Below the pieces are notes generated by a model that searched no databases, was not told the DNA's origin, and worked only from the letters and a program-made list of their open reading frames with translations. Shown here piece by piece: positions 39,977 to 60,357 of a DNA stretch of 64,000 nt. A program made the translations under genes and the position numbers. The first letter of the stretch is position 1. The number at the start of each line of letters is the position of its first letter. Source of the DNA: Pagrus major (lineage: Eukaryota > Chordata > Actinopteri > Spariformes > Sparidae); assembly GCF_040436345.1 (NCBI RefSeq), contig NC_133238.1, positions 5,396,150 through 5,460,149 on the forward strand. The letters are read 5' to 3'.

Positions 39977-40018
39977 ACCACCTTCTTGATCATGGTATCT
40001 CCCCTGCCAGGTAAGTAT
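39977..40018 (-). ncRNA. U1 snRNA gene, 5' part only (cut by gap)
   Basis: nt 1-42 of U1, with the 5' splice-site pairing segment ACTTACCT intact; the rest lies in the assembly gap. Confidence 0.93.
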
Positions 40019-40663: not shown

Positions 40664-40827
40664 CAGGGGAGAGCGCGGACGCAGTCCCCCACTACCACAA
40701 ATTATGCAGTCGAGATTCCCACATTTGGGGAATTCGCAGGGGTCAGCACAACCGGAGTGCAATGGCTGAGCCTCGCCCTGGGTGAACCACCTTCTTGATC
40801 ATGGTATCTCCCCTGCCAGGTAAGTAT
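40664..40827 (-). ncRNA. U1 snRNA gene (reference copy for the array)
   Basis: Full-length 164-nt U1 snRNA, the RNA of the U1 snRNP that pairs with 5' splice sites in the nucleus. Read on the minus strand it begins ATACTTACCTGGCAGGGGAG, so nt 3-10 can pair with a 5' splice site. Stem-loop I has loop GATCAAGAAG (nt 28-37), fitting the U1-70K site GAUCANGAAG. The U1A-binding loop region carries ATTGCACTCC, the Sm site is AATTTGTGG at nt 125-133, and stem-loop IV has CTGCGTCCGCG and ends in CCCCTG. A PSE-like element and a possible 3' box flank it. One feature differs from human U1 in every array copy: nt 44-48 read CACCC where human has TTCCC or similar, which may weaken stem I. It is likely transcribed by RNA polymerase II if the array is active. 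Confidence 0.97.
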
Positions 40828-40869
40828 GAGTTGGAACAGTCTGACACAGGATGGCCTTTCCCAGGCTCA

Positions 40870-40889
40870 GCCCCCTGGCTGACGGTGCC
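40870..40889 (-). promoter_or_regulatory. Candidate PSE of U1 (example from first full unit)
   Basis: On the minus strand GGCACCGTCAGCCAGGGGGC lies at -62 to -43 from the U1 start, where vertebrate snRNA genes carry the proximal sequence element bound by SNAPc. Its CACCGTCAGC core resembles the CACCGTGACT core of mammalian elements. It recurs in every unit. An octamer-like CTGCAAAT (40959-40966, 7 of 8) lies near -135, closer than a usual distal element. Confidence 0.5.
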
Positions 40890-41472
40890 TCTGGGGGGAT
40901 AATAGCAGAGTTAGGTGCCTTGGGCAATTTGCTCATCCTCATTGGGCACTAAAAGTTGCTGCAAATTCAAAAACACTGGTGCGACTTGACGAGGGTGGCT
41001 GGTCCACACATTGTGCCTGTTTTGTGTCCTTTTTCTAGCGATCCATCGCTCGGCAAAATAGAAAAATAACACTCCGTCAACGGCCACTTGGCATGATGTC
41101 TCCGCCCAGTCTGAATGCAACCAGAGACAATGTGCCGCACAAAAGCCTACCAGTAGGCATTCCAGCAATGGACGCGTCCAGACCACATTTCTTATGCAAT
41201 GCCTCGCAGAGGAGGAGACGCAACAAGGTTTGTGCCGTCTCTAGCAGGCCACGCCCACTCTGCCCTTTTACCGGGAAAACGGGTAACCCGCACGCAACGC
41301 ACTGTGACACAGCAGACGCCGGTGTACTGCAACGCTGTGACTTTCAGGACGGATTGAAACGGTAACACAAGGACCCCAAAGCAGCATTCAGAGGTTGAAG
41401 GTCGGCTTTCCGAGCTGCTCGGCAGAAAGCGCGGGAGACGAGCACTCACTTGTTTTTCTTCCACATTGTCAT

Positions 41473-41636
41473 CAGGGGAGAGCGCGGACGCAGTCCCCCA
41501 CTACCACAAATTATGCAGTCGAGATTCCCACATTTGGGGAATTCGCAGGGGTCAGCACAACCGGAGTGCAATGGCTGAGCCTCGCCCTGGGTGAACCACC
41601 TTCTTGATCATGGTATCTCCCCTGCCAGGTAAGTAT
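41473..41636 (-). ncRNA. U1 snRNA gene
   Basis: Full length, no difference seen from the 40664-40827 copy. Its counterpart in the 17103-bp duplication is 58576-58739. Confidence 0.97.
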
Positions 41637-42281
41637 GAGTTGGAACAGTCTGACACAGGATGGCCTTTCCCAGGCTCAGCCCCCTGGCTGACGGTGCCTC
41701 TGGGGGGATAATAGCAGAGTTAGGTGCCTTGGGCAATTTGCTCATCCTCATTGGGCACTAAAAGTTGCTGCAAATTCAAAAACACTGGTGCGACTTGACG
41801 AGGGTGGCTGGTCCACACATTGTGCCTGTTTTGTGTCCTTTTTCTAGCGATCCATCGCTCGGCAAAATAGAAAAATAACACTCCGTCAACGGCCACTTGG
41901 CATGATGTCTCCGCCCAGTCTGAATGCAACCAGAGACAATGTGCCGCACAAAAGCCTACCAGTAGGCATTCCAGCAATGGACGCGTCCAGACCACATTTC
42001 TTATGCAATGCCTCGCAGAGGAGGAGACGCAACAAGGTTTGTGCCGTCTCTAGCAGGCCACGCCCACTCTGCCCTTTTACCGGGAAAACGGGTAACCCGC
42101 ACGCAACGCACTGTGACACAGCAGACGCCGGTGTACTGCAACGCTGTGACTTTCAGGACGGATTGAAACGGTAACACAAGGACCCCAAAGCAGCATTCAG
42201 AGGTTGAAGGTCGGCTTTCCGAGCTGCTCGGCAGAAAGCGCGGGAGACGAGCACTCACTTGTTTTTCTTCCACATTGTCAT

Positions 42282-42445
42282 CAGGGGAGAGCGCGGACGC
42301 AGTCCCCCACTACCACAAATTATGCAGTCGAGATTCCCACATTTGGGGAATTCGCAGGGGTCAGCACAACCGGAGTGCAATGGCTGAGCCTCGCCCTGGG
42401 TGAACCACCTTCTTGATCATGGTATCTCCCCTGCCAGGTAAGTAT
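42282..42445 (-). ncRNA. U1 snRNA gene
   Basis: Full length, no difference seen from the reference copy. Counterpart at 59385-59548; the unit upstream of both carries the private spacer change GCAACGAGAGAC (42736 and 59839). Confidence 0.97.
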
Positions 42446-43090
42446 GAGTTGGAACAGTCTGACACAGGATGGCCTTTCCCAGGCTCAGCCCCCTGGCTGA
42501 CGGTGCCTCTGGGGGGATAATAGCAGAGTTAGGTGCCTTGGGCAATTTGCTCATCCTCATTGGGCACTAAAAGTTGCTGCAAATTCAAAAACACTGGTGC
42601 GACTTGACGAGGGTGGCTGGTCCACACATTGTGCCTGTTTTGTGTCCTTTTTCCAGCGATCCATCGCTCGGCAAAATAGAAAAATAACACTCCGTCAACG
42701 GCCACTTGGCATGATGTCTCCGCCCAGTCTGAATGCAACGAGAGACAATGTGCCGCACAAAAGCCTACCAGTAGGCATTCCAGCAATGGACGCGTCCAGA
42801 CCACATTTCTTATGCAATGCCTCGCAGAGGAGGAGACGCAACAAGGTTTGTGCCGTCTCTAGCAGGCCACGCCCACTCTGCCCTTTTACCGGGAAAACGG
42901 GTAACCCGCACGCAACGCACTGCGACACAGCAGACGCCGGTGTACTGCAACGCTGTGACTTTCAGGACGGATTGAAACGGTAACACAAGGACCCCAAAGC
43001 AGCATTCAGAGGCTGAAGGTCGGCTTTCCGAGCTGCTCGGCAGAAAGCGCGGGAGACGAGCACTCACTTGTTTTTCTTCCACATTGTCAT

Positions 43091-43254
43091 CAGGGGAGAG
43101 CGCGGACGCAGTCCCCCACTACCACAAATTATGCAGTCGAGATTCCCACATTTGGGGAATTCGCAGGGGTCAGCACAACCGGAGTGCAATGGCTGAGCCT
43201 CGCCCTGGGTGAACCACCTTCTTGATCATGGTATCTCCCCTGCCAGGTAAGTAT
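43091..43254 (-). ncRNA. U1 snRNA gene
   Basis: Full length, reference sequence. Its spacer has CTCTGAGGGGATAA (near 43317), shared only with the counterpart unit near 60420. The counterpart gene 60194-60357 differs by one base in stem-loop IV. Confidence 0.97.
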
Positions 43255-44313
43255 GAGTTGGAACAGTCTGACACAGGATGGCCTTTCCCAGGCTCAGCCC
43301 CCTGGCTGACGGTGCCTCTGAGGGGATAATAGCAGAGTTAGGTGCCTTGGGCAATTTGCTCATCCTCATTGGGCACTAAAAGTTGCTGCAAATTCAAAAA
43401 CACTGGTGCGACTTGACGAGGGTGGCTGGTCCACACATTGTGCCTGTTTTGTGTCCTTTTTCCAGCGATCCATCGCTCGGCAAAATAGAAAAATAACACT
43501 CCGTCAACGGCCACTTGGCATGATGTCTCCGCCCAGTCTGAATGCAACCAGAGACAATGTGCCGCACAAAAGCCTACCAGTAGGCATTCCAGCAATGGAC
43601 GCGTCCAGACCACATTTCTTATGCAATGCCTCGCAGAGGAGGAGACGCAACAAGGTTTGTGCCGTCTCTAGCAGGCCACGCCCACTCTGCCCTTTTACCG
43701 GGAAAACGGGTAACCCGCACGCAACGCACTGCGACACAGCAGACGCCGGTGTACTGCAACGCTGTGACTTTCAGGACGGATTGAAACGGTAACACAAGGA
43801 CCCCAAAGCAGCATTCAGAGGTTGAAGGTCGGCTTTCCGAGCTGCTCGGCAGAAAGCGCGGGAGACGAGCACTCACTTGTTTTTCTTCCACATTGTCATC
43901 AGACAAATAACACTCCGTCAACGGCCACTTGGCATGATGTCTCCGCCCAGTCTGAATGCAACCAGAGACAATGTGCCGCACAAAAGCCTACCAGTAGGCA
44001 TTCCAGCAATGGACGCGTCCAGACCACATTTCTTATGCAATGCCTCGCAGAGGAGGAGACGCAACAAGGTTTGTGCCGTCTCTAGCAGGCCACGCCCACT
44101 CTGCCCTTTTACCGGGAAAACGGGTAACCCGCACGCAACGCACTGCGACACAGCAGACGCCGGTGTACTGCAACGCTGTGACTTTCAGGACGGATTGAAA
44201 CGGTAACACAAGGACCCCAAAGCAGCATTCAGAGGTTGAAGGTTGGCTTTCCGAGCTGCTCGGCAGAAAGCGCGGGAGACGAGCACTCATTTGTTTTTCT
44301 TCCACATTGTCAT
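43255..44313 (-). repeat. Array unit that lost its U1 gene (395-bp deletion), copy 1
   Basis: At 43902/43903 the last three bases of a U1 gene (CAG on the plus strand) are joined to spacer ACAAATAACACTCC, removing 395 bp: nearly the whole U1 gene, its promoter and the nearby spacer. As a result two U1 starts are 1223 bp apart (43254 and 44477) instead of 809. The same junction recurs at 61005, so both derive from one event. Confidence 0.92.
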
Positions 44314-44477
44314 CAGGGGAGAGCGCGGACGCAGTCCCCCACTACCACAAGTTATGCAGTCGAGATTCCCACATTTGGGGAATTCGCAGGGGTCAGCACA
44401 ACCGGAGTGCAATGGCTGAGCCTCGCCCTGGGTGAACCACCTTCTTGATCATGGTATCTCCCCTGCCAGGTAAGTAT
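44314..44477 (-). ncRNA. U1 snRNA gene with Sm-site variant (U127C)
   Basis: Full length, but 44351 is G on the plus strand where all other copies have A. The RNA Sm site would read AACUUGUGG instead of AAUUUGUGG. A change in the U-tract of the Sm site can weaken Sm ring assembly, so this copy may make a poor snRNP. Its duplication counterpart, 61417-61580, has the normal site. Confidence 0.95.
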
Positions 44478-45122
44478 GAGTTGGAACAGTCTGACACAGG
44501 ATGGCCTTTCCCAGGCTCAGCCCCCTGGCTGACGGTGCCTCTGTGGGGATAATAGCAGAGTTAGGTGCCTTGGGCAATTTGCTCATCCTCATTGGGCACT
44601 AAAAGTTGCTGCAAATTCAAAACCACTGGTGCGACTTGACGAGGGTGGCTGGTCCACACATTGTGCCTGTTTTGTGTCCTTTTTCCAGCGATCCATCGCT
44701 CGGCAAAATAGAAAAATAACACTCCGTCAACGGCCACTTGGCATGATGTCTCCGCCCAGTCTGAATGCAACCAGAGACAATGTGCCGCACAAAAGCCTAC
44801 CAGTAGGCATTCCAGCAATGGACGCGTCCAGACCACATTTCTTATGCAATGCCTCGCAGAGGAGGAGACGCAACAAGGTTTGTGCCGTCTCTAGCAGGCC
44901 ACGCCCACTCTGCCCTTTTACCGGGAAAACGGGTAACCCGCACGCAACGCACTGCGACACAGCAGACGCCGGTGTACTGCAACGCTGTGACTTTCAGGAC
45001 GGATTGAAACGGTAACACAAGGACCCCAAAGCAGCATTCAGAGGTTGAAGGTCGGCTTTCCGAGCTGCTCGGCAGAAAGCGCGGGAGACGAGCACTCACT
45101 TGTTTTTCTTCCACATTGTCAT

Positions 45123-45286
45123 CAGGGGAGAGCGCGGACGCAGTCCCCCACTACCACAAATTATGCAGTCGAGATTCCCACATTTGGGGAATTCGCAGGG
45201 GTCAGCACAACCGGAGTGCAATGGCTGAGCCTCGCCCTGGGTGAACCACCTTCTTGATCATGGTATCTCCCCTGCCAGGTAAGTAT
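45123..45286 (-). ncRNA. U1 snRNA gene
   Basis: Full length, reference sequence. It is the last whole gene before the copy split by the LINE. The next unit's spacer carries GGACACGTCC (45631), a variant shared with the units near 54231, 58276 and 63541. Confidence 0.97.
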
Positions 45287-45931
45287 GAGTTGGAACAGTC
45301 TGACACAGGATGGCCTTTCCCAGGCTCAGCCCCCTGGCTGACGGTGCCTCTGGGGGGATAATAGCAGAGTTAGGTGCCTTGGGCAATTTGCTCATCCTCA
45401 TTGGGCACTAAAAGTTGCTGCAAATTCAAAAACACTGGTGCGACTTGACGAGGGTGGCTGGTCCACACATTGTGCCTGTTTTGTGTCCTTTTTCCAGCGA
45501 TCCATCGCTCGGCAAAATAGAAAAATAACACTCCGTCAACGGCCACTTGGCATGATGTCTCCGCCCAGTCTGAATGCAACCAGAGACAATGTGCCGCACA
45601 AAAGCCTACCAGTAGGCATTCCAGCAATGGACACGTCCAGACCACATTTCTTATGCAATGCCTCGCAGAGGAGGAGACGCAACAAGGTTTGTGCCGTCTC
45701 TAGCAGGCCACGCCCACTCTGCCCTTTTACCGGGAAAACGGGTAACCCGCACGCAACGCACTGCGACACAGCAGACGCCGGTGTACTGCAACGCTGTGAC
45801 TTTCAGGACGGATTGAAACGGTAACACAAGGACCCCAAAGCAGCATTCAGAGGTTGAAGGTCGGCTTTCCGAGCTGCTCGGCAGAAAGCGCGGGAGACGA
45901 GCACTCACTTGTTTTTCTTCCACATTGTCAT

Positions 45932-46058
45932 CAGGGGAGAGCGCGGACGCAGTCCCCCACTACCACAAATTATGCAGTCGAGATTCCCACATTTGGGGAA
46001 TTCGCAGGGGTCAGCACAACCGGAGTGCAATGGCTGAGCCTCGCCCTGGGTGAACCAC
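45932..46058 (-). ncRNA. U1 snRNA gene, 3' part (nt 38-164), split by LINE
   Basis: The 3' 127 nt of a U1 gene, from GTGGTTCACCC to the CCCCTG end, with the Sm site and stem-loops II-IV in reference form. Its nt 1-34 lie at 51425-51458 on the far side of a 5366-bp LINE, and nt 35-37 (AAG) are missing. The gene is disrupted. Confidence 0.95.
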
Positions 46059-46076
46059 TTTTCACTTTTTAGAAGC

Positions 46077-46083
46077 TTTTATT
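46077..46083 (-). terminator. LINE polyadenylation signal
   Basis: AATAAAA on the minus strand, 18 bp before the LINE 3' end at 46059, consistent with an intact 3' end made by target-primed reverse transcription. Confidence 0.65.
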
Positions 46084-46248
46084 AATTTCAGTCAAAATTA
46101 GTTACAGACATACATTAATCCCACAATTAAAATTGCCCAACACCAAGTAGATATTCTAATCAAATAAATAATAGTTACATTTCATTCAATAAACATTCTA
46201 TTCAGCAGTTGTAACACCAAATAGATGTTCCATTCAGTTTTCTTAATT

Positions 46249-49200
46249 TTAAAAAAGATCCATTAAAGCAACAGGAATTTTGTCAGTTTTCCACCAGTTT
46301 TTCATTTCTTGATCATTATACTTAATTCTATCCCTAATGATGTAGTCCCTGACACCTGTAATGCCAACCTTTGCCACAGAATCAGGTGAAATAGAGAGCT
46401 TTCTGAAGGCAGTTAGGTTTCTGCATTTCCAGATACCTTCTTTGACACAGTTGATGATTGCCCACCACCTTTCATTTCTGTCCTTTTCATCTGTCTCAAT
46501 GTTTCCATATAAAACATCCATTTCATTAGGGGCTCTAAAAAGGTCTGTTAACCATGGATTTAGAATTTCCCACACTGCCCTTGAAACAGCGCATGACCAA
46601 AAGCAGTGGGCCACATCTTCACCATCATTACAATTTTTTATTGGACATTTAGCACTACGTGTGCATCGCCTTCTCAGTAAGAAGGCTCTTGTAGGGACAC
46701 AATTTTGGGCTATCTTCCAGGCCAGGTCCTTATGTACATTGAACAAAAATGGTAAGTTTACATTTTTCCAAACTCTGATGCATTTGCTCTCAGGTAGGAT
46801 ACCTACCGGCACAAGGCTAGAGGTCGGGGGTGAAAGGCACCCCTCCACATCAACCCTATCTATTTTACCTACCACAGACCAATCTAACTTTGCTACTTTA
46901 AAGAGTGTTAATGCTCTCTCGTATAGAGCTGGTCTACTTTCAGCATTGGGCGTACAAAGAGAAACCCTTTTACCCTTCCCTCGATACATCATGCGGCCTA
47001 CCCAAAACTTGGCAAAATGAAACCAGAGACTGGTATTGCTCTCTGTAAAAACCGCATTTAAAATTGGTGTCAAAAAAAGGGCATCAAATTTGGCCCCCAA
47101 CTCAGGTACAGCTTTCCCTCCTTTAACCAGAGGTTTGTACATGATGTCTCTTTTGACATGTTCTTGTTGGGAGCTCCAAATGAATTGAAACATGATGCGT
47201 CTCAAAGAGGTCAGGAATGTCTTGGGAGCTGGCAGAGTGGCTCCCAGAAAGGTCAAAGAGGCCAGAACCTCAGCCTTAATCACCAAAATTTTGCCAGTGA
47301 ATGTTAGATCCCTCTCCTCCCACTGAAGCAATTTCCCTTTGATAGCTGGTAATCTTGTTTCCCAATTTATGATTTCCATTCCCTTCCCAATTTCCACTCC
47401 CAAAATTTTTACCCTCTCTTCTTTTTCAACCAACCCTAAATCAGGCTTTCTTTCTGGCCAATTAAGGTAGAGGATCTCACTTTTGGCCCGGTTCAGTTTG
47501 GCCCCAGATGCTTGAGAAAATTGCTCACTCCACTGGAGGGCTTTAACCATTGAATTATTGCTGGTACAAAGGATTGTCAAGTCATCCATATACAGGGACA
47601 TTTTAGCCTCCTTTCCATTACTACCAGGGACAGGAAGGCCCCGAATATCAGTGTCATGTTTTATCCCACAGGCCAGAGGCTCCATGGCTAGTACAAACAG
47701 GCTGACTGATAGCGGGCATCCCTGTCTGACCCCTGACTGGATCTTAATAGGTTCACTGAAGTGGCCATTAATGTTTACTCTACTAGAGCAATCAAAGTAC
47801 AGTAAATTAATCCATGCCCTCAACTGTGGGCCAAACCCAAACCTCACCAGTGCTTCTTTGAGATACTCATGGCTTATTCTATCAAAGGCTTTTTCTAAAT
47901 CCAGGCCAGCAATACATAGGGGTACATTGCGATCTAAAGCATACAAGTATGAATCTCTTATTAAAGCAAGGTTATCACTCATGGAGCGACCTGGAACCAC
48001 ACAGGTCTGCTCGACCCCAACCAACCTCTCTATTACCTCTTGTAGGCGAAGAAAGATTGCTTTTGCTAGAATCTTACGATCAACACCAAGGAGTGTAAGG
48101 GGGCGCCAGTTTTTAAGATCTTTTTTCTCACCTTTCTTAAATAGAAGGGAAATGGTACCTTCCTTTAGGGATGGTGGTAACGACCCTTATTGGAGGCTCT
48201 CATTGTACATCTCCAAAAGAGGGGCCTTTAACTCTGCCCAGAAGGTAGTATAAAATTCTTTTGGCAACCCATCTGCCCCAGGGGCCTTGTTATTTTGCAT
48301 GCTTTCTACTGCTTTGGTGAGTTCACTCAGAGATATTTTACTGTCAAGCTTCCCTTTAAATTCGTTAATATTTTTATCTACTTTAGATAGAAGGTTTTCT
48401 AAAGCTGTCTTATCTAAATCTTCACTTTTGTAAAGATCAGAGTAGAAGGAGTGTACACAACTTAGTATCTCATGTATTTCAGTTTTTTCTTGCCCCTCTT
48501 TATTCTTTAATCCTTCTATAAAGTTTTTAGGCCTAGCTAATTTCCTAAAAAAGTATCTAGAGCATTTTTCATTGTTTTCCATGTGGTGGACTCGGCTACG
48601 AATCAGTAGCCCCCGACTGGCCGCCGTGGAGAGGCGTAACATCTCTCTCTTCAATTGAGCTATATCCTCTGCAACATCTAGCCCGGCATAAGCCATTATA
48701 TAAAATCTCTGCAGCTTTGCCTGATATTTCTGGAGCTTCAGACGTCTCTTTTTAGCAGTTCGTTTACCCACCTCTATGAAAAAAGTTTTTGCCCTAATCT
48801 TGACTTCTTCCCACCATTCCCCCACAGAGTTGAAGGAGGGCTTAAGAGAGAGCCATTGGTTAAGCTTCACCTTAAAATCATTGACCACCTTTGCATCTTG
48901 TAGTAGGGAAATATTCAGCTTCCATGAACCTCTACCTTTTTTGATGTTTTCTTTAAACATGAGAGAACATTCAATTTTATGATGGTCAGAGAAAAAAACT
49001 GGCGTGACTGCTGCATCTACAACCTGCAGCCCCCTTGATGTCAACAGAAAGTCTATTCTGGAATGGGTTCTGCCGTTGGACCAGGTATACCCAGGTAAAC
49101 TCGGATTTTTTAAGCGGTAAACATCTATCAGTCTAAAATCTTTAATAATGTTTTTTAGGATTTCAGAACTGGAGTCCAGCCTTACTGTGGAGGTGGTTAA

Positions 49201-49659
49201 CTTTTCTTTTTTGCTTACCAAGCAGTTGAAATCGCCACCCAGAATGACCTCTCTGTTACACAACAAAAGGGGTTGTAATTCTTTGAGCACTGTTAACCGT
49301 TCTCGGAGCTCAACAGGGCAATACACATTGATTACTCTTAACTTAGCGTTAAACAGTGAAACATCAACACATAGAATTCTCCCATCTATCACACGTTGTA
49401 CCTTCTGGATGATAAAATCATGCCCTCTAAATAATACTGCAACCCCTGAAGATCTGTTTTTGTTGTCGCCTGACCATACTGATGGGCCGTGGCTCCATCT
49501 CTCCTCGAAGACCTTGTAATTCTCTCTATAGGATACATTACATTCTTGAAGTAGGAAGATGTCATTACCCTCTGAGTGTAGAAAAGTGAAGGCTGATGAG
49601 CACTTTACTGGGTCATTTAGTCCTCTAGTATTGAGGGATGCTATAGAGAGAGGAGCCAT
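46249..49659 (-). pseudogene. LINE ORF2: endonuclease and reverse transcriptase, one in-frame stop
   Basis: From ATG at 49659 (MAPLSIASLNTRGL) to TAA at 46249-46251 a single frame runs through 1136 codons, broken only by TAA at 48187-48189 after MYNESLQ. The APE endonuclease domain spans residues 1 to about 225: SLNTRGL, FLLQECNV, VILGGDFNCLV, HSRIDFLLTS and FFSDHHKIEC, with the catalytic E, D, N, D and H present. The reverse transcriptase follows: NNKAPGADGLPKEF before the stop, then NWRPLTLLGVDRK, DLEKAFDRISHEYL, SGVRQGCPLSVSLF, SLYMDDLTILC (catalytic YMDD) and KILGVEIG. The C-terminal zinc-binding region (zf-RVT type) holds CPIKNCNDGEDVAHCFWSC. All visible catalytic residues are kept. The stop lies between the first RT blocks, so endonuclease and RT would be separated; one substitution could account for it. 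Confidence 0.93.
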
Positions 49660-49714
49660 AGAAGTGCAGTTCAAAGGGGTGAAGAGGGTTAGTTCAGTGA
49701 CAACTATGTAACAT

Positions 49715-51322
49715 CTACTTTTTCTTAATTATCTTCTTTTTCTTTGGTTTCACATCTCTTTCCACCTTTCTTGACATGTCTTTTATCTGTGTTGTAGATG
49801 TAAAAGCAACTACAACATCTTGCTCAAGAAAGGGGTTTGATGTGGGGGAGGAAACGGGCCAGTTGGAATGAGGTAACACAGAAGAGGTCGAGGGGGAGGA
49901 TTCACCTGATGGGGGGGACTCATTTACCCGTTTTCTTGAAGGAGAGTCCACTGTGTCTGGTACCAAGGTGGTGGCAATGGGAAGGGGCAAAGAGGTCAGT
50001 AAGGACTGGGAGGCATCTTCAGCCCGTTCCATGGAGGTCTGGGAGCTGGGATCTGGCACTGATGCAAGGTTGACTGTAGATGTTGACCTCGGGCGTTGGC
50101 CATCCAATGATGAGGAGGCAGATGAGTCTGGTCCCTGATGGATGGTGATGATTGGCAGCAGGGATGTTGAGCCCTCAACTTCCTCGAAGAGAGAATTGGC
50201 CGTTGGTTCTTGTTTCAAGGTAGCTGCATGAGGAGAGATGCTAGCCAGCAGGTTGTCCAGACGGTTCCCTGCCTCCTGTAGAGTCATCGGTGTCAACTCT
50301 GTCCTTGAGCTGGAGCCAGGTTCGGGAGGATGGTCTGCTTGATGGAAAGCAGTGAGGTCCATTGTGGAGGCAGGGGAGTTGAATGCTTCGTCGTCATTCT
50401 CTAATAGCCCAGCGCTCCAGTCCAAGACTCGTGTTCCCTCTTGTACCTCCTCCTCCAGGTCCAACACCGGTTCTTCACTTGGCTGTTGGAGTGCAGGGCC
50501 AGATGGCTGTCGCACTGGGCTTGTATGTTGAGAGGGCGCCTGATTGTTGCCAGAGTTTTCAGCAATGTGGTCTTGGCCTAAAGAAACAATTGATCTTACT
50601 GTGGACAGTTTCAGCCGGTTGGAGTATGCTTGAGGGCAGTCTTTAAAGCGATGTTGGGCTGAGGCACAGAGATTGCATTTTACAGGGGTTGGACATTGGG
50701 CTGTTGTATGGTCGAATGCTTTGCAGTTCCTGCAGATGTCCACCGTACATGCAGCAGCCAGATGTTCTAGGCTGCCGCATTTACGACATTCTTTTGGCTG
50801 ACCAGAGTAGAACACAGACCCTCTGAAGGCTCCCAACTGGATGGTGCTTGGGAGATGCTGGAGGACCCCCTGTCGCCTTATGAGACGCACTTGAAATCGT
50901 CTGGTGCCTGTCTTGATTCCATCTATGTCAACAACTTCCATGGCATGAATCACCTCACAGTACCGAGCCATCCATGTCCAAACATCCTGGTTCCTGACTC
51001 TCTCAGAGAAAATCATTACATGTACTGTTTTCAGGTCTCTCTCTGCCAAAGGTGACATAATAATGTTCTTGAAGCTTGTTGTTGACTTTTTCTTGATTTC
51101 AAACTTTTCCAGGCAATTTTCGTAGTATCGTGTTGTTGTAAATATCACCTCAAAGATCTTCTTACCCGGAAATGCAAAAACGTAGTCAAGCTGGTTGGTG
51201 GAAATGCCAAGTTCTTTTTGCAAAATCTGTCTGCTGAATTGCAGCCGGTCCATCTGAAGATCTTCCAGAAGGTCGAAGCGGACAGCATTCCTGCGGTTGG
51301 CTTGATTGTTTCCTAACGCCAT
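49715..51322 (-). CDS. LINE ORF1 protein, three CCHC zinc knuckles
   Basis: An intact 535-residue frame from ATG 51322 to a stop at 49715. It is the RNA-binding ORF1 protein of the LINE, expected to coat the element's RNA. Residues 1 to about 165 form an N-terminal domain (RFDLLEDLQMDRLQFS, YVFAFPGKKIFEVIF, LKTVHVMIFSERVRNQDVW), which resembles the RRM-like or esterase-less ORF1 head seen in fish and frog Tx1-type LINEs. Three CCHC knuckles follow with exact C-x2-C-x4-H-x4-C spacing: C179 to C192, C197 to C210, and C216 to C229. The rest is Ser/Pro/Thr-rich and low in structure, ending in a very basic tail (VKPKKKKIIKKK). It is not a host gene; its only neighbour is ORF2, 55 bp downstream. 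No breaks were seen. Confidence 0.92.
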   Translation of the reverse strand: MALGNNQANRRNAVRFDLLEDLQMDRLQFSRQILQKELGISTNQLDYVFAFPGKKIFEVIFTTTRYYENCLEKFEIKKKSTTSFKNIIMSPLAERDLKTVHVMIFSERVRNQDVWTWMARYCEVIHAMEVVDIDGIKTGTRRFQVRLIRRQGVLQHLPSTIQLGAFRGSVFYSGQPKECRKCGSLEHLAAACTVDICRNCKAFDHTTAQCPTPVKCNLCASAQHRFKDCPQAYSNRLKLSTVRSIVSLGQDHIAENSGNNQAPSQHTSPVRQPSGPALQQPSEEPVLDLEEEVQEGTRVLDWSAGLLENDDEAFNSPASTMDLTAFHQADHPPEPGSSSRTELTPMTLQEAGNRLDNLLASISPHAATLKQEPTANSLFEEVEGSTSLLPIITIHQGPDSSASSSLDGQRPRSTSTVNLASVPDPSSQTSMERAEDASQSLLTSLPLPIATTLVPDTVDSPSRKRVNESPPSGESSPSTSSVLPHSNWPVSSPTSNPFLEQDVVVAFTSTTQIKDMSRKVERDVKPKKKKIIKKK

Positions 51323-51424
51323 GCTGGTCCTCTGGCCAGAAAGGAGCCGGTATGATATAGCCGCCGACGCTATTTACTTTATTGTGCCCCATACACCGCT
51401 CGACAACAATAGAGTCAGTTGATA
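51323..51424 (-). promoter_or_regulatory. LINE 5' UTR
   Basis: The 102 bp between the U1 junction and ORF1 ATG. It is short for a LINE with its own promoter. Because the LINE lies downstream of the U1 promoter and 34 nt into the U1 gene, the U1 promoter might drive it; this is inference. Confidence 0.6.
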
Positions 51425-51458
51425 CTTGATCATGGTATCTCCCCTGCCAGGTAAGTAT
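51425..51458 (-). ncRNA. U1 snRNA gene, 5' part (nt 1-34), split by LINE
   Basis: ATACTTACCTGGCAGGGGAG and on to GATCAAG, the first 34 nt of U1, followed directly by LINE sequence. The upstream promoter region is intact (PSE-like element at about 51501-51520). The 3' part of this gene is 45932-46058. Confidence 0.95.
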
Positions 51459-52103
51459 GAGTTGGAACAGTCTGACACAGGATGGCCTTTCCCAGGCTCA
51501 GCCCCCTGGCTGACGGTGCCTCTGGGGGGATAATAGCAGCGTTAGGTGCCTTGGGCAATTTGCTCATCCTCATTGGGCACTAAAAGTTGCTGCAAATTCA
51601 AAAACACTGGTGCGACTTGACGAGGGTGGCTGGTCCACACATTGTGCCTGTTTTGTGTCCTTTTTCCAGCGATCCATCGCTCGGCAAAATAGAAAAATAA
51701 CACTCCGTCAACGGCCACTTGGCATGATGTCTCCGCCCAGTCTGAATGCAACCAGAGACAATGTGCCGCACAAAAGCCTACCAGTAGGCATTCCAGCAAT
51801 GGACGTGTCCAGACCACATTTCTTATGCAATGCCTCGCAGAGGAGGAGACGCAACAAGGTTTGTGCCGTCTCTAGCAGGCCACGCCCACTCTGCCCTTTT
51901 ACCGGGAAAACGGGTAACCCGCACGCAACGCACTGCGACACAGCAGACGCCGGTGTACTGCAACGCTGTGACTTTCAGGACGGATTGAAACGGTAACACA
52001 AGGACCCCAAAGCAGCATTCAGAGGTTGAAGGTTGGCTTTCCGAGCTGCTCGGCAGAAAGCGCGCCAGACGAGCACTCACTTGTTTTTCTTCCACATTGT
52101 CAT

Positions 52104-52267
52104 CAGGGGAGAGCGCGGACGCAGTCCCCCACTACCACAAATTATGCAGTCGAGATTCCCACATTTGGGGAATTCGCAGGGGTCAGCACAACCGGAGTGC
52201 AATGGCTGAGCCTCGCCCTGGGTGAACCACCTTCTTGATTATGGTATCTCCCCTGCCAGGTAAGTAT
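52104..52267 (-). ncRNA. U1 snRNA gene, G28A variant
   Basis: Full length, but 52240 is T on the plus strand, giving A at nt 28 (AUACCAUAAUC). nt 28 is the first base of the U1-70K loop consensus GAUCANGAAG. The same variant is in 56149-56312, 4045 bp away. Confidence 0.96.
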
Positions 52268-52912
52268 GAGTTGGAACAGTCTGACACAGGATGGCCTTTC
52301 CCAGGCTCAGCCCCCTGGCTGACGGTGCCTCTTGGGGGATAATAGCAGAGTTAGGTGCCTTGGGCAATTTGCTCATCCTCATTGGGCACTAAAAGTTGCT
52401 GCAAATTCAAAAACACTGGTGCGACTTGACGAGGGGGGCTGGTCCACACATTGTGCCTGTTTTGTGTCCTTTTTCCAGCGATCCATCGCTCGGCAAAATA
52501 GAAAAATAACACTCCGTCAACGGCCACTTGGCATGATGTCTCCGCCCAGTCTGAATGCAACCAGAGACAATGTGCCGCACAAAAGCCTACCAGTAGGCAT
52601 TCCAGCAATGGACGCGTCCAGACCACATTTCTTATGCAATGCCTCGCAGAGGAGGAGACGCAACAAGGCTTGTGCCGTCTCTAGCAGGCCACGCCCACTC
52701 TGCCCTTTTACCGGGAAAACGGGTAACCCGCACGCAACGCACTGCGACACAGCAGACGCCGGTGTACTGCAACGCTGTGACTTTCAGGACGGATTGAAAC
52801 GGTAACACAAGGACCCCAAAGCAGCATTCAGAGGTTGAAGGTTGGCTTTCCGAGCTGCTCGGCAGAAAGCGCGGGAGACGAGCACTCATTTGTTTTTCTT
52901 CCACATTGTCAT

Positions 52913-53076
52913 CAGGGGAGAGCGCGGACGCAGTCCCCCACTACCACAAATTATGCAGTCGAGATTCCCACATTTGGGGAATTCGCAGGGGTCAGCACAA
53001 CCGGAGTGCAATGGCTGAGCCTCGCCCTGGGTGAACCACCTTCTTGATCATGGTATCTCCCCTGCCAGGTAAGTAT
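52913..53076 (-). ncRNA. U1 snRNA gene
   Basis: Full length, reference sequence. Higher-order counterparts are 56958-57121 and 62226-62389. The next unit's spacer has GTCAACAGCC (53331), shared with the counterpart units. Confidence 0.97.
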
Positions 53077-53721
53077 GAGTTGGAACAGTCTGACACAGGA
53101 TGGCCTTTCCCAGGCTCAGCCCCCTGGCTGACGGTGCCTCTGGGGGGATAATAGCAGAGTTAGGTGCCTTGGGCAATTTGCTCATCCTCATTGGGCACTA
53201 AAAGTTGCTGCAAATTCAAAAACACTGGTGCGACTTGACGAGGGTGGCTGGTCCACACATTGTGCCTGTTTTGTGTCCTTTTTCCAGCGATCCATCGCTC
53301 GGCAAAATAGAAAAATAACACTCCGTCAACAGCCACTTGGCATGATGTCTCCGCCCAGTCTGAATGCAACCAGAGACAATGTGCCGCACAAAAGCCTACC
53401 AGTAGGCATTCCAGCAATGGACGCGTCCAGACCACATTTCTTATGCAATGGCTCGCAGAGGAGGAGACGCAACAAGGTTTGTGCCGTCTCTAGCAGGCCA
53501 CGCCCACTCTGCCCTTTTACCGGGAAAACGGGTAACCCGCACGCAACGCACTGCGACACAGCAGACGCCGGTGTACTGCAACGCTGTGACTTTCAGGACG
53601 GATTGAAACGGTAACACAAGGACCCCAAAGCAGCATTCAGAGGTTGAAGGTTGGCTTTCCGAGCTGCTCGGCAGAAAGTGCGGGAGACGAGCACTCATTT
53701 GTTTTTCTTCCACATTGTCAT

Positions 53722-53885
53722 CAGGGGAGAGCGCGGACGCAGTCCCCCACTACCACAAATTATGCAGTCGAGATTCCCACATTTGGGGAATTCGCAGGGG
53801 TCAGCACAACCGGAGTGCAATGGCTGAGCCTCGCCCTGGGTGAACCACCTTCTTGATCATGGTATCTCCCCTGCCAGGTAAGTAT
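53722..53885 (-). ncRNA. U1 snRNA gene
   Basis: Full length, reference sequence. Counterparts are 57767-57930 and 63035-63198; just 3' of all three the spacer has GAAAGTGCGGGAG instead of GAAAGCGCGGGAG. Confidence 0.97.
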
Positions 53886-54530
53886 GAGTTGGAACAGTCT
53901 GACACAGGATGGCCTTTCCCAGGCTCAGCCCCCTGGCTGACGGTGCCTCTGGGGGGATAATAGCAGAGTTAGGTGCCTTGGGCAATTTGCTCATCCTCAT
54001 TGGGCACTAAAAGTTGCTGCAAATTCAAAAACACTGGTGCGACTTGACGAGGGTGGCTGGTCCACACATTGTGCCTGTTTTGTGTCCTTTTTCCAGCGAT
54101 CCATCGCTCTGCAAAATAGAAAAATAACACTCCGTCAACGGCCACTTGGCATGATGTCTCCGCCCAGTCTGAATGCAACCAGAGACAATGTGCCGCACAA
54201 AAGCCTACCAGTAGGCATTCCAGCAATGGACACGTCCAGACCACATTTCTTATGCAATGCCTCGCAGAGGAGGAGACGCAACAAGGTTTGTGCCGTCTCT
54301 AGCAGGCCACGCCCACTCTGCCCTTTTACCGGGAAAACGGGTAACCCGCACGCAACGCACTGCGACACAGCAGACGCCGGTGTACTGCAACGCTGTGACT
54401 TTCAGGACGGATTGAAACGGTAACACAAGGACCCCAAAGCAGCATTCAGAGGTTGAAGGTCGGCTTTCCGAGCTGCTCGGCAGAAAGCGCGGGAGACGAG
54501 CACTCACTTGTTTTTCTTCCACATTGTCAT

Positions 54531-54694
54531 CAGGGGAGAGCGCGGACGCAGTCCCCCACTACCACAAATTATGCAGTCGAGATTCCCACATTTGGGGAAT
54601 TCGCAGGGGTCAGCACAACCGGAGTGCAATGGCTGAGCCTCGCCCTGGGTGAACCACCTTCTTGATCATGGTATCTCCCCTGCCAGGTAAGTAT
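54531..54694 (-). ncRNA. U1 snRNA gene
   Basis: Full length, reference sequence. Counterparts are 58576-58739 and the copy cut by the window edge at 63844. Confidence 0.97.
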
Positions 54695-55339
54695 GAGTTG
54701 GAACAGTCTGACACAGGATGGCCTTTCCCAGGCTCAGCCCCCTGGCTGACGGTGCCTCTTGGGGGATAATAGCAGAGTTAGGTGCCTTGGGCAATTTGCT
54801 CATCCTCATTGGGCACTAAAAGTTGCTGCAAATTCAAAAACACTGGTGCGACTTGACGAGGGGGGCTGGTCCACACATTGTGCCTGTTTTGTGTCCTTTT
54901 TCCAGCGATCCATCGCTCGGCAAAATAGAAAAATAACACTCCGTCAACGGCCACTTGGCATGATGTCTCCGCCCAGTCTGAATGCAACCAGAGACAATGT
55001 GCCGCACAAAAGCCTACCAGTAGGCATTCCAGCAATGGACGCGTCCAGACCACATTTCTTATGCAATGCCTCGCAGAGGAGGAGACGCAACAAGGTTTGT
55101 GCCGTCTCTAGCAGGCCACGCCCACTCTGCCCTTTTACCGGGAAAACGGGTAACCCGCACGCAACGCACTGCGACACAGCAGACGCCGGTGTACTGCAAC
55201 GCTGTGACTTTCAGGACGGATTGAAACGGTAACACAAGGACCCCAAAGCAGCATTCAGAGGTTGAAGGTTGGCTTTCCGAGCTGCTCGGCAGAAAGCGCG
55301 GGAGACGAGCACTCATTTGTTTTTCTTCCACATTGTCAT

Positions 55340-55503
55340 CAGGGGAGAGCGCGGACGCAGTCCCCCACTACCACAAATTATGCAGTCGAGATTCCCACAT
55401 TTGGGGAATTCGCAGGGGTCAGCACAACCGGAGTGCAATGGCTGAGCCTCGCCCTGGGTGAACCACCTTCTTGATCATGGTATCTCCCCTGCCAGGTAAG
55501 TAT
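55340..55503 (-). ncRNA. U1 snRNA gene
   Basis: Full length, reference sequence. It lies at the end of the first five-unit repeat; the next unit carries GCAGCGTTAGG (55581), a variant also seen right after the LINE-split gene (51536). Confidence 0.97.
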
Positions 55504-56148
55504 GAGTTGGAACAGTCTGACACAGGATGGCCTTTCCCAGGCTCAGCCCCCTGGCTGACGGTGCCTCTGGGGGGATAATAGCAGCGTTAGGTGCCTTGGG
55601 CAATTTGCTCATCCTCATTGGGCACTAAAAGTTGCTGCAAATTCAAAAACACTGGTGCGACTTGACGAGGGTGGCTGGTCCACACATTGTGCCTGTTTTG
55701 TGTCCTTTTTCCAGCGATCCATCGCTCGGCAAAATAGAAAAATAACACTCCGTCAACGGCCACTTGGCATGATGTCTCCGCCCAGTCTGAATGCAACCAG
55801 AGACAATGTGCCGCACAAAAGCCTACCAGTAGGCATTCCAGCAATGGACGTGTCCAGACCACATTTCTTATGCAATGCCTCGCAGAGGAGGAGACGCAAC
55901 AAGGTTTGTGCCGTCTCTAGCAGGCCACGCCCACTCTGCCCTTTTACCGGGAAAACGGGTAACCCGCACGCAACGCACTGCGACACAGCAGACGCCGGTG
56001 TACTGCAACGCTGTGACTTTCAGGACGGATTGAAACGGTAACACAAGGACCCCAAAGCAGCATTCAGAGGTTGAAGGTTGGCTTTCCGAGCTGCTCGGCA
56101 GAAAGCGCGCCAGACGAGCACTCACTTGTTTTTCTTCCACATTGTCAT

Positions 56149-56312
56149 CAGGGGAGAGCGCGGACGCAGTCCCCCACTACCACAAATTATGCAGTCGAGA
56201 TTCCCACATTTGGGGAATTCGCAGGGGTCAGCACAACCGGAGTGCAATGGCTGAGCCTCGCCCTGGGTGAACCACCTTCTTGATTATGGTATCTCCCCTG
56301 CCAGGTAAGTAT
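56149..56312 (-). ncRNA. U1 snRNA gene, G28A variant
   Basis: Full length with T at 56285, the same nt-28 change as 52104-52267. The matching gene of the third repeat, 61417-61580, lacks it. Confidence 0.96.
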
Positions 56313-56957
56313 GAGTTGGAACAGTCTGACACAGGATGGCCTTTCCCAGGCTCAGCCCCCTGGCTGACGGTGCCTCTTGGGGGATAATAGCAGAGTTAGG
56401 TGCCTTGGGCAATTTGCTCATCCTCATTGGGCACTAAAAGTTGCTGCAAATTCAAAAACACTGGTGCGACTTGACGAGGGGGGCTGGTCCACACATTGTG
56501 CCTGTTTTGTGTCCTTTTTCCAGCGATCCATCGCTCGGCAAAATAGAAAAATAACACTCCGTCAACGGCCACTTGGCATGATGTCTCCGCCCAGTCTGAA
56601 TGCAACCAGAGACAATGTGCCGCACAAAAGCCTACCAGTAGGCATTCCAGCAATGGACGCGTCCAGACCACATTTCTTATGCAATGCCTCGCAGAGGAGG
56701 AGACGCAACAAGGTTTGTGCCGTCTCTAGCAGGCCACGCCCACTCTGCCCTTTTACCGGGAAAACGGGTAACCCGCACGCAACGCACTGCGACACAGCAG
56801 ACGCCGGTGTACTGCAACGCTGTGACTTTCAGGACGGATTGAAACGGTAACACAAGGACCCCAAAGCAGCATTCAGAGGTTGAAGGTTGGCTTTCCGAGC
56901 TGCTCGGCAGAAAGCGCGGGAGACGAGCACTCATTTGTTTTTCTTCCACATTGTCAT

Positions 56958-57121
56958 CAGGGGAGAGCGCGGACGCAGTCCCCCACTACCACAAATTATG
57001 CAGTCGAGATTCCCACATTTGGGGAATTCGCAGGGGTCAGCACAACCGGAGTGCAATGGCTGAGCCTCGCCCTGGGTGAACCACCTTCTTGATCATGGTA
57101 TCTCCCCTGCCAGGTAAGTAT
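56958..57121 (-). ncRNA. U1 snRNA gene
   Basis: Full length, reference sequence. The adjoining spacer has a private GGCATTTAAGCAATG (57451) where all other units have GGCATTCCAGCAATG. Confidence 0.97.
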
Positions 57122-57766
57122 GAGTTGGAACAGTCTGACACAGGATGGCCTTTCCCAGGCTCAGCCCCCTGGCTGACGGTGCCTCTGGGGGGATAATAGC
57201 AGAGTTAGGTGCCTTGGGCAATTTGCTCATCCTCATTGGGCACTAAAAGTTGCTGCAAATTCAAAAACACTGGTGCGACTTGACGAGGGTGGCTGGTCCA
57301 CACATTGTGCCTGTTTTGTGTCCTTTTTCCAGCGATCCATCGCTCGGCAAAATAGAAAAATAACACTCCGTCAACAGCCACTTGGCATGATGTCTCCGCC
57401 CAGTCTGAATGCAACCAGAGACAATGTGCCGCACAAAAGCCTACCAGTAGGCATTTAAGCAATGGACGCGTCCAGACCACATTTCTTATGCAATGGCTCG
57501 CAGAGGAGGAGACGCAACAAGGTTTGTGCCGTCTCTAGCAGGCCACGCCCACTCTGCCCTTTTACCGGGAAAACGGGTAACCCGCACGCAACGCACTGCG
57601 ACACAGCAGACGCCGGTGTACTGCAACGCTGTGACTTTCAGGACGGATTGAAACGGTAACACAAGGACCCCAAAGCAGCATTCAGAGGTTGAAGGTTGGC
57701 TTTCCGAGCTGCTCGGCAGAAAGTGCGGGAGACGAGCACTCATTTGTTTTTCTTCCACATTGTCAT

Positions 57767-57930
57767 CAGGGGAGAGCGCGGACGCAGTCCCCCACTACCA
57801 CAAATTATGCAGTCGAGATTCCCACATTTGGGGAATTCGCAGGGGTCAGCACAACCGGAGTGCAATGGCTGAGCCTCGCCCTGGGTGAACCACCTTCTTG
57901 ATCATGGTATCTCCCCTGCCAGGTAAGTAT
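57767..57930 (-). ncRNA. U1 snRNA gene
   Basis: Full length, reference sequence; fourth gene of the second five-unit repeat after the LINE. Confidence 0.97.
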
Positions 57931-58575
57931 GAGTTGGAACAGTCTGACACAGGATGGCCTTTCCCAGGCTCAGCCCCCTGGCTGACGGTGCCTCTGGGGG
58001 GATAATAGCAGAGTTAGGTGCCTTGGGCAATTTGCTCATCCTCATTGGGCACTAAAAGTTGCTGCAAATTCAAAAACACTGGTGCGACTTGACGAGGGTG
58101 GCTGGTCCACACATTGTGCCTGTTTTGTGTCCTTTTTCCAGCGATCCATCGCTCTGCAAAATAGAAAAATAACACTCCGTCAACGGCCACTTGGCATGAT
58201 GTCTCCGCCCAGTCTGAATGCAACCAGAGACAATGTGCCGCACAAAAGCCTACCAGTAGGCATTCCAGCAATGGACACGTCCAGACCACATTTCTTATGC
58301 AATGCCTCGCAGAGGAGGAGACGCAACAAGGTTTGTGCCGTCTCTAGCAGGCCACGCCCACTCTGCCCTTTTACCGGGAAAACGGGTAACCCGCACGCAA
58401 CGCACTGCGACACAGCAGACGCCGGTGTACTGCAACGCTGTGACTTTCAGGACGGATTGAAACGGTAACACAAGGACCCCAAAGCAGCATTCAGAGGTTG
58501 AAGGTCGGCTTTCCGAGCTGCTCGGCAGAAAGCGCGGGAGACGAGCACTCACTTGTTTTTCTTCCACATTGTCAT

Positions 58576-58739
58576 CAGGGGAGAGCGCGGACGCAGTCCC
58601 CCACTACCACAAATTATGCAGTCGAGATTCCCACATTTGGGGAATTCGCAGGGGTCAGCACAACCGGAGTGCAATGGCTGAGCCTCGCCCTGGGTGAACC
58701 ACCTTCTTGATCATGGTATCTCCCCTGCCAGGTAAGTAT
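58576..58739 (-). ncRNA. U1 snRNA gene
   Basis: Full length, reference sequence. Around here the sequence switches from matching the five-unit repeat to matching the 42-44 kb segment (offset 17103); the switch is near 59100. Confidence 0.97.
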
Positions 58740-59384
58740 GAGTTGGAACAGTCTGACACAGGATGGCCTTTCCCAGGCTCAGCCCCCTGGCTGACGGTGC
58801 CTCTTGGGGGATAATAGCAGAGTTAGGTGCCTTGGGCAATTTGCTCATCCTCATTGGGCACTAAAAGTTGCTGCAAATTCAAAAACACTGGTGCGACTTG
58901 ACGAGGGGGGCTGGTCCACACATTGTGCCTGTTTTGTGTCCTTTTTCCAGCGATCCATCGCTCGGCAAAATAGAAAAATAACACTCCGTCAACGGCCACT
59001 TGGCATGATGTCTCCGCCCAGTCTGAATGCAACCAGAGACAATGTGCCGCACAAAAGCCTACCAGTAGGCATTCCAGCAATGGACGCGTCCAGACCACAT
59101 TTCTTATGCAATGCCTCGCAGAGGAGGAGACGCAACAAGGTTTGTGCCGTCTCTAGCAGGCCACGCCCACTCTGCCCTTTTACCGGGAAAACGGGTAACC
59201 CGCACGCAACGCACTGTGACACAGCAGACGCCGGTGTACTGCAACGCTGTGACTTTCAGGACGGATTGAAACGGTAACACAAGGACCCCAAAGCAGCATT
59301 CAGAGGTTGAAGGTCGGCTTTCCGAGCTGCTCGGCAGAAAGCGCGGGAGACGAGCACTCACTTGTTTTTCTTCCACATTGTCAT

Positions 59385-59548
59385 CAGGGGAGAGCGCGGA
59401 CGCAGTCCCCCACTACCACAAATTATGCAGTCGAGATTCCCACATTTGGGGAATTCGCAGGGGTCAGCACAACCGGAGTGCAATGGCTGAGCCTCGCCCT
59501 GGGTGAACCACCTTCTTGATCATGGTATCTCCCCTGCCAGGTAAGTAT
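59385..59548 (-). ncRNA. U1 snRNA gene
   Basis: Full length, reference sequence; counterpart of 42282-42445. Confidence 0.97.
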
Positions 59549-60193
59549 GAGTTGGAACAGTCTGACACAGGATGGCCTTTCCCAGGCTCAGCCCCCTGGC
59601 TGACGGTGCCTCTGGGGGGATAATAGCAGAGTTAGGTGCCTTGGGCAATTTGCTCATCCTCATTGGGCACTAAAAGTTGCTGCAAATTCAAAAACACTGG
59701 TGCGACTTGACGAGGGTGGCTGGTCCACACATTGTGCCTGTTTTGTGTCCTTTTTCCAGCGATCCATCGCTCGGCAAAATAGAAAAATAACACTCCGTCA
59801 ACGGCCACTTGGCATGATGTCTCCGCCCAGTCTGAATGCAACGAGAGACAATGTGCCGCACAAAAGCCTACCAGTAGGCATTCCAGCAATGGACGCGTCC
59901 AGACCACATTTCTTATGCAATGCCTCGCAGAGGAGGAGACGCAACAAGGTTTGTGCCGTCTCTAGCAGGCCACGCCCACTCTGCCCTTTTACCGGGAAAA
60001 CGGGTAACCCGCACGCAACGCACTGCGACACAGCAGACGCCGGTGTACTGCAACGCTGTGACTTTCAGGACGGATTGAAACGGTAACACAAGGACCCCAA
60101 AGCAGCATTCAGAGGCTGAAGGTCGGCTTTCCGAGCTGCTCGGCAGAAAGCGCGGGAGACGAGCACTCACTTGTTTTTCTTCCACATTGTCAT

Positions 60194-60357
60194 CAGGGGA
60201 GAGGGCGGACGCAGTCCCCCACTACCACAAATTATGCAGTCGAGATTCCCACATTTGGGGAATTCGCAGGGGTCAGCACAACCGGAGTGCAATGGCTGAG
60301 CCTCGCCCTGGGTGAACCACCTTCTTGATCATGGTATCTCCCCTGCCAGGTAAGTAT
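60194..60357 (-). ncRNA. U1 snRNA gene with stem-loop IV variant (G154C)
   Basis: Full length, but 60204 is G on the plus strand where others have C, so nt 154 becomes C (CCGCCCUCUCC). This should break a pair in stem-loop IV. Its counterpart 43091-43254 is normal, so the change is younger than the duplication. Confidence 0.96.

What the first reader, a model, noticed from the sequence alone, without database searches (positions are those of the whole stretch)
46059..51424. Near-complete Tx1-like LINE lodged inside a U1 snRNA gene at nt 34/38
Seen: the LINE 5' end abuts U1 nt 34 and its 3' end abuts U1 nt 38, in U1 orientation, with only the AAG triplet lost. Known: the Tx1 clade contains families that insert at fixed sites in multicopy RNA genes (5S, U2, tRNA). 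Inferred: this may be a U1-targeting family, with its site in the stem-loop I loop, the U1-70K binding site. Sitting in a tandem array would make insertions tolerable and supply a strong upstream promoter. A single copy cannot prove specificity.
Basis: partly seen in the sequence, partly recalled or inferred. Interest (0 to 1): 0.88.

Follow-up and report, generated by a model that had tools for sequence, protein, structure and literature searches.

The report
U1 snRNA gene-specific LINE family
A selfish copy-and-paste DNA element has inserted itself repeatedly at one exact base inside the U1 splicing-RNA genes of its host, a target that we did not find reported for this class of element.

Summary
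Confirmed and strengthened. Window 46059-51424 (- strand) is a 5,366-bp LINE between U1 nt 34 and nt 38. Whole-genome searches found ten copies, all in one U1 tandem array on contig C24; 10 of 10 end at U1 nt 38, in U1 orientation. Different 5' ends (full-length at nt 34; truncated at nt 54, 48/49 and 42/43) mark at least four separate insertions at one nick, so array duplication alone cannot explain them. Six of nine dispersed U1 genes were read; they keep an identical, empty target. Five copies have an unbroken ORF2; the window copy has not. The RT lies in a 25-row clade (100/100), sister (94/85) to Keno, the U2-targeting Tx1-type LINE, which sits in U2 on the same chromosome. A divergent relative lies outside U1 but carries U1 nt 3-48 as its 5' leader, without U1 upstream sequence: the likely trace of an RNA begun at the U1 start site. 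Best reading: a U1-specific Tx1-group lineage that nicks U1 after nt 37 and is transcribed from the U1 promoter. Specificity is near certain in this genome; promoter use is likely but rests on one locus.

The parts
46059..51424 (-). U1-specific LINE, window copy, 5,366 bp, 5' end at 51424, 3' end (GTGAAAA) at 46059
51425..51458 (-). U1 nt 1-34, upstream half of the interrupted U1 gene (promoter side)
45932..46058 (-). U1 nt 38-164, downstream half of the interrupted U1 gene
49715..51322 (-). ORF1, 535 aa: two ZCCHC3-type RNA-binding domains and a CCHC zinc knuckle
46249..49728 (-). ORF2 reading frame: APE-type endonuclease, reverse transcriptase, C-terminal zinc-binding domain; one premature stop in this copy
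   Evidence: Pfam Exo_endo_phos, RVT_1, zf-RVT
48957..49674 (-). Endonuclease region, aligned to L1 endonuclease structures
40664..64000 (-). Part of the tandem U1 array (unit mostly 809 bp) in which all ten LINE copies found lie

Best explanation
This is one copy of a two-ORF, APE-endonuclease LINE family, close to Keno in the Tx1 group, that retrotransposes specifically into U1 snRNA genes. Shown: ORF2 with endonuclease and RT domains; ten 3' ends at U1 nt 38; several different 5' ends; no copy found outside the U1 array; a divergent relative whose 5' leader is U1 nt 3-48. Inferred: the endonuclease nicks the bottom strand between nt 37 and 38 and reverse transcription of the short A tail starts there (target-primed reverse transcription). 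A looser top-strand cut gives duplications of about 5-17 bp in 5'-truncated copies, while full-length copies resolve at nt 34 with loss of nt 35-37. Because all ten copies lie in U1 orientation and keep the U1 start, the U1 promoter most likely makes a U1-LINE fusion RNA, whose U1 leader may help place the 5' end. More than 160 intact array genes plus dispersed intact U1 genes make the damage tolerable.
For: 10 of 10 genome matches to the last 642 bp and to the last 200 bp, the same ten, lie in the C24 U1 array; each is followed by GTGGTTCACCC, U1 nt 38 on. 5' junctions of the ten: nt34|TATC in 4, nt34|GATC in 2, nt54 in 2, nt48/49 in 1, nt42/43 in 1; A tails of 4 in six copies, 5 in three, 7 in one. 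A nested double insertion fits a target rebuilt by the duplication. In the genome-wide RT search (75 rows) the 12 rows at 87-100% identity are the array copies; then come the relict (2 rows, 47 and 58%), 16 Keno-like rows (33-35%) and 45 scattered rows (31-36%). Five copies have an unbroken ORF2 frame of 1,159 aa. Between the two subtypes pN is 0.0034-0.0037 against pS 0.024-0.026. Control: Keno on the same chromosome joins U2 at the published site in 5 of 5 3' ends read, out of 16 rows. Relative: 46 of 46 bases of U1 nt 3-48 directly before its 5' UTR, with decayed U2/Keno sequence upstream and no match to U1 upstream sequence.
Against: Array duplication has multiplied some copies: the two nt34|GATC copies look like one segment repeated about 62 kb apart, and 5' forms and 3' subtypes are reshuffled, so ten copies are fewer than ten events. 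The nt54 duplication is 13-17 bp, because four bases fit U1 and LINE alike. Within one subtype the few differences are not biased to silent ones (3 silent, 6 changing). One interrupted gene (5608832) has a changed upstream region, 24 mismatches in 250 without gaps, against 0-1 in the other six compared. All data come from one assembly; the target sites of the clade's other 23 tree rows are unknown. The U1-leader evidence is one locus whose 3' end is lost, so where that element was inserted is unknown, and the element with the leader was itself not in the tree. No RNA data.
Confidence: 0.88

Rival explanations
1. One chance insertion of an unspecific LINE into a U1 gene, multiplied afterwards by unequal crossing-over in the tandem array.
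For: All ten copies found are in one array; the two GATC copies look like a duplicated segment and subtypes are recombined.
Against: Truncated copies with three different 5' ends and their own target duplications share the same 3' base, and no copy was found outside U1. A divergent relative also carries U1 sequence at its 5' end.
Confidence: 0.04
2. The family is U1-specific but has its own internal promoter in the roughly 100-base 5' UTR; the U1 promoter plays no part, and the U1 leader of the relative came from recombination or template switching.
For: No ribozyme match and no U1/5'UTR structure beyond chance that would process a fusion RNA; the U1 leader is seen at one locus only.
Against: The leader starts at U1 nt 3, next to the start site, without U1 upstream sequence; all ten copies lie in sense orientation with the U1 start kept.
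Confidence: 0.25
3. The element is a Keno family that recently switched from U2 to U1, not a separate older lineage.
For: Keno is the sister clade (94/85); both insert about 37 nt into an snRNA (PMC6136364 for Keno); U1 and, as recalled, U2 share GATCAAG just upstream (about 1% by chance, noticed after the fact).
Against: The U1-LINE clade (25 rows) and the Keno clade (5 rows) are each 100/100 and about 34-38% identical, and two divergent members of the former are tied to U1.
Confidence: 0.08

Closest known systems
Keno (Tx1-type LINE in U2 snRNA genes)
   Same: APE-type endonuclease, RT and zf-RVT, zinc-knuckle ORF1 upstream (read), sense insertion about 37 nt into an snRNA gene (PMC6136364, passages), target bases lost in the one in-U2 full-length 5' end read; closest named lineage in the tree.
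   Different: Different gene (U1, not U2), different clade (25 rows, 100/100), 34-38% amino-acid identity, 3-base rather than about 12-base target loss (the U2 numbering is recalled).
Dada-U1 DNA transposons (zebrafish)
   Same: Insert at a fixed site in U1 genes (PMC3706591, passages).
   Different: DNA transposons with a DDE transposase and short duplications at CTGCGAAT, further along U1; no reverse transcription.
Utopia (U2-associated, restriction-like endonuclease)
   Same: snRNA-gene-specific non-LTR element; tandem insertions reported for one family (PMC4640811, passages).
   Different: Different endonuclease type, generally one protein, U2 target.
Mutsu, Dewa and Tx1L
   Same: Target-specific LINEs; Mutsu for 5S rRNA and Dewa for the tRNA-Leu spacer in PMC3706591 (passage). 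That they belong to the Tx1 group, and the target of Tx1L, are recalled.

Membership tests
Target-specific non-LTR retrotransposon (LINE) | Reverse transcriptase and endonuclease in ORF2 | tested here: met
Target-specific non-LTR retrotransposon (LINE) | Fixed 3' junction across separate insertions, variable 5' truncation | tested here: met
   10 of 10 3' ends at U1 nt 38; at least four 5' ends
Target-specific non-LTR retrotransposon (LINE) | No copies outside the target | tested here: met
   by searches that score best candidates only; a 5'-end search did not complete. The divergent relict family lies outside U1.
Tx1 clade | RT groups with Tx1-type elements | tested here: met
   34-row clade 100/100 with Keno; sister to Keno 94/85, not a starred branch. 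Xenopus Tx1L itself was not in the tree.
Tx1 clade | APE-type endonuclease and CCHC ORF1 | tested here: met
Keno | Insertion in U2 after about nt 37 | tested here: not met
   Inserted in U1; this genome's Keno is in U2
Keno | RT inside the Keno clade | tested here: not met
Target-specific non-LTR retrotransposon (LINE) | Endonuclease cuts the target in vitro | not testable with these tools
   needs biochemistry

The most novel reading that the evidence does not exclude
The whole 25-row clade is an old U1-specific lineage that lives off the U1 promoter: its RNA starts at U1 nt 1, and the U1 leader in that RNA both helps align the 5' end at the target and, in rare off-target events, travels with the element. 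With Keno this would make 'about 37 nt downstream of an snRNA start site, sense strand' a shared rule of snRNA-targeting LINEs.
Probability: 0.4. Interest if true: 0.82.

Novelty: new variant of a known kind. Interest (0 to 1): 0.72.

Why it matters
It adds U1 to the targets of LINEs. A 2015 paper listed only Keno and Utopia (U2), Dada-U1 and Dada-U6 for snRNA genes (PMC4640811, passage), and the listings of my seven answered paper searches showed no paper on a LINE in U1. U1 is high-copy, almost invariant and strongly transcribed (the last recalled), so a family with five unbroken ORF2 frames and one exact site is a natural system for target choice, promoter capture and site-specific insertion. 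The same chromosome also holds its U2 counterpart, which allows direct comparison.

Tried and rejected
Ribozyme at the 5' end: Rfam at E up to 10 gave two weak matches, to a COG2908 RNA (E 0.42) and to the CoTC ribozyme (E 8.8), neither near its cut-off. A U1-leader/5'UTR structure: no more stable than with shuffled U1 (145 of 300 shuffles as low or lower). Context of relatives: genome contigs gave one hit at 30%, viral contigs none, a U1-junction pattern in viral contigs none. The A/B label printed came from a wrong test string and is not used; subtypes are taken and from locus lengths. The relict piece at C24 2.02 Mb could not be tied to U1: upstream stretches read N and its 3' side runs into other sequence. 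Searches for further copies of the divergent family by DNA, for the LINE 5' end, and for U2 did not complete.
Full report
OBSERVATION. The window is C24:5396150-5460149 of an unnamed 785.9-Mb genome in 25 contigs, probably a bony fish (inference from genome size and from fish-labelled relatives). The LINE fills 46059-51424 on the - strand, 5,366 bp, between U1 nt 34 and nt 38; nt 35-37 are missing. Rfam reports 22 U1 matches in the window. In Rfam's U1 structure the stem-loop I loop is nt 28-37, so the 3' junction is the loop/stem boundary. That this loop binds U1-70K is recalled, not tested.

THE ARRAY. I read C24:5390001-5620000 continuously. It holds 166 full-length U1 matches and 16 partial ones. 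The partial ones are eight genes interrupted by LINE (the one at 5619987 has its 5' half beyond the stretch, in L032) and one gene cut at nt 42 by a 100-N gap at the array's lower end. Leaving that last one out, 8 of 174 genes are interrupted. A ninth, at 5627777, lies beyond; its 3' end was read in L001 and its 5' end in L033, the pairing inferred from the matching distance of 5,366 bp. Of 181 spacings between neighbouring U1 matches 149 are 809 bp and 24 are 1,223 bp; in the one long unit compared, 414 bp of spacer are duplicated.

TEN COPIES, ONE BASE. Whole-genome DNA searches with the last 642 bp and the last 200 bp each returned ten matches, the same ten, all in this array. All ten are followed by U1 nt 38 onward and lie in U1 orientation. 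U1 nt 37 is G and the LINE ends in A, so the 3' junction is not ambiguous. Tails have 4 A in six copies, 5 in three and 7 in one. 5' ends: nt34|TATCAACTG in the window copy, 5603438, 5619987 and 5627777; nt34|GATCAACTG in 5548121 and 5486033; nt 54 joined to LINE position 109 in 5530296 and 5465786; and two short copies nested in one gene. That gene reads U1 1-43, truncated LINE, U1 38-48, truncated LINE, U1 38-164, each 5' junction ambiguous by one base. The simplest history is that the downstream copy came first and left a duplication of nt 38-48, which rebuilt the site for the second. If so, U1 up to about nt 48 is enough downstream target. The nt54 duplication is 13-17 bp, because four bases fit U1 and LINE alike. 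The T/G form at nt 34 may be a mere point change, so 5' ends give at least four separate insertions; duplication and recombination inside the array account for the rest. Six longer copies compared in full fall into two 3' subtypes that are combined with different 5' forms.

ACTIVITY. Of those six copies, three keep ORF2 as one 1,159-aa frame, the window copy has one premature stop, and two share a one-base deletion late in ORF2; one of these two also has a two-base deletion in ORF1. The two nt54 copies lack the ORF1 start, so among the six only 5603438 has both frames whole. Genome-wide, five copies have the 1,159-aa frame without stops: 5530296, 5627777, 5619987, 5603438 and 5465786. Between subtypes pN is 0.0034-0.0037 and pS 0.024-0.026; within one subtype 3 silent and 6 changing differences are too few to judge. 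ORF1 has two ZCCHC3-type RNA-binding domains and a zinc knuckle; ORF2 has APE endonuclease, RT and zf-RVT. ORF2 matches L1 ORF2 chains over residues 4-859, and the endonuclease aligns with L1 endonuclease chains. Upstream of seven interrupted genes, 250 bp differ from the array majority by 0-1 base in six and by 24 (ungapped) in the seventh, whose unit is shortened; the 114 and 124 bp read for two more differ by 0 and 1.

OTHER COPIES IN THE GENOME. The RT search scored 74 of 3,131 candidates and listed 75 rows. By position 12 rows are the ten array copies, 2 are a relict at C24 2.02 Mb (47 and 58%), 16 are a family at 33-35% clustered at C24 5.65-5.79 and 1.87-1.89 Mb, and 45 are scattered rows at 31-36%. 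An RT-bearing U1-LINE elsewhere should have outranked the last three groups. The 33-35% family is Keno: Rfam finds U2 at the two 3' ends given to it, and 5 of 5 3' ends read, out of 16 rows, join U2 at TCTGTTCTTATC, the target quoted for Keno in PMC6136364 (passages). Two Keno 5' ends were seen: one joins U2 at nt 25/26, the other follows spacer instead of the U2 5' half (L030), perhaps by recombination.

DISPERSED U1 GENES. Rfam's genome search scored 42 of 10,000 candidates, and nine of the 42 lie on C2, C10, C13 and C22; the list is a lower bound. I read six of the nine; all six have nt 1-60 identical to the array gene and are uninterrupted. With so few genes the absence of LINEs there is no surprise, but the host has intact U1 elsewhere.

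TREE. The homologue search scored 7,995 candidates and found 132 proteins, 120 listed. With own-genome loci I used 76 rows; left out were P0019, a likely clade member, 52 of P0054-P0121, and L039. The U1-LINE belongs to a 25-row clade (100/100), made of itself, the relict at 2.02 Mb and 23 database proteins; P0004 is nearest (76%). Its sister is the Keno clade (94/85, not starred), and both lie in a 34-row clade (100/100). The program warned of long branches in outer rows.

THE RELATIVE WITH A U1 LEADER. A search with P0020, from another branch of the clade, found broken pieces at C24 2.02 and 2.05 Mb, 79 and 84% identical over the two longer ones, while P0020 is 53-55% identical to the U1-LINE. 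Upstream of the 2.05-Mb element (L047) stand 46 of 46 bases of U1 nt 3-48, then its 5' UTR and an open ORF1 frame of 524 aa. Rfam scores this U1 piece 32.8 bits, under its cut-off of 69.5. Before it there is no match to U1 upstream sequence but decayed U2 spacer, the start of U2 and Keno's 5' end, 69% identical over 584 columns to the Keno locus at 5.65 Mb. The simplest reading is an RNA that began at the U1 start site, ran through U1 nt 48 into the LINE, and was inserted off target. This ties a second, distant member of the clade to U1, with a 5' junction at nt 48 as in one truncated array copy (nt 48/49), and supports transcription from the U1 promoter. It is one locus, its 3' end is lost, and this element was placed by its 84% match to P0020, not by the tree.

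MECHANISM. Shown: fixed 3' base, orientation, variable 5' ends with duplications, U1 leader on a relative. Inferred: bottom-strand nick at 37/38, target-primed reverse transcription, second cut near nt 42-54, full-length 5' ends resolved at nt 34, RNA from the U1 promoter. A GATCAAG just upstream of the U1 site is also present in U2 as recalled; a simple simulation gives about 1% by chance, but it was noticed after the fact.

LITERATURE. The listings showed no paper on a U1-targeting LINE; they give titles and abstract starts only. Passages were read of PMC3706591, PMC8869645, PMC4640811, PMC3747384, PMC12274263, PMC6136364 and PMC10361878. Kojima and Fujiwara 2004 was not seen, and Repbase cannot be searched here, so a database-only U1 family is possible.

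Noticed in passing
C24:5649005-5794398 and C24:1869849-1887984 (L029, L030, L034, L044-L046): A large Keno/U2 cluster lies just beyond the U1 array on the same chromosome; many of its rows have an unbroken ORF2 frame of 1,141 aa.
   Followed up: partly
window 39877-39976: A 100-N gap cuts the last U1 gene of the array at nt 42 (39977-40018); the array may go on in the gap.
   Followed up: no
C24:5436126-5620000: 24 of 181 spacings in the array are 1,223 bp; in the one unit compared, 414 bp of spacer after U1 are duplicated.
   Followed up: partly
for example C24:5602665, 5585574, 5555941: Several array U1 genes carry G to A at nt 28, the first base of the stem-loop I loop.
   Followed up: no
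C24:5553514 and 5491424: Two LINE copies and their neighbouring U1 variants repeat about 62 kb apart, a sign of large duplications inside the array.
   Followed up: no
L030 (C24:1874600-1875800): A Keno 5' end follows spacer sequence instead of the U2 5' half.
   Followed up: no
P0101: An annotated Dissostichus mawsoni protein matches the LINE at 74% over 13% of the query, hinting at the family in another fish.
   Followed up: no
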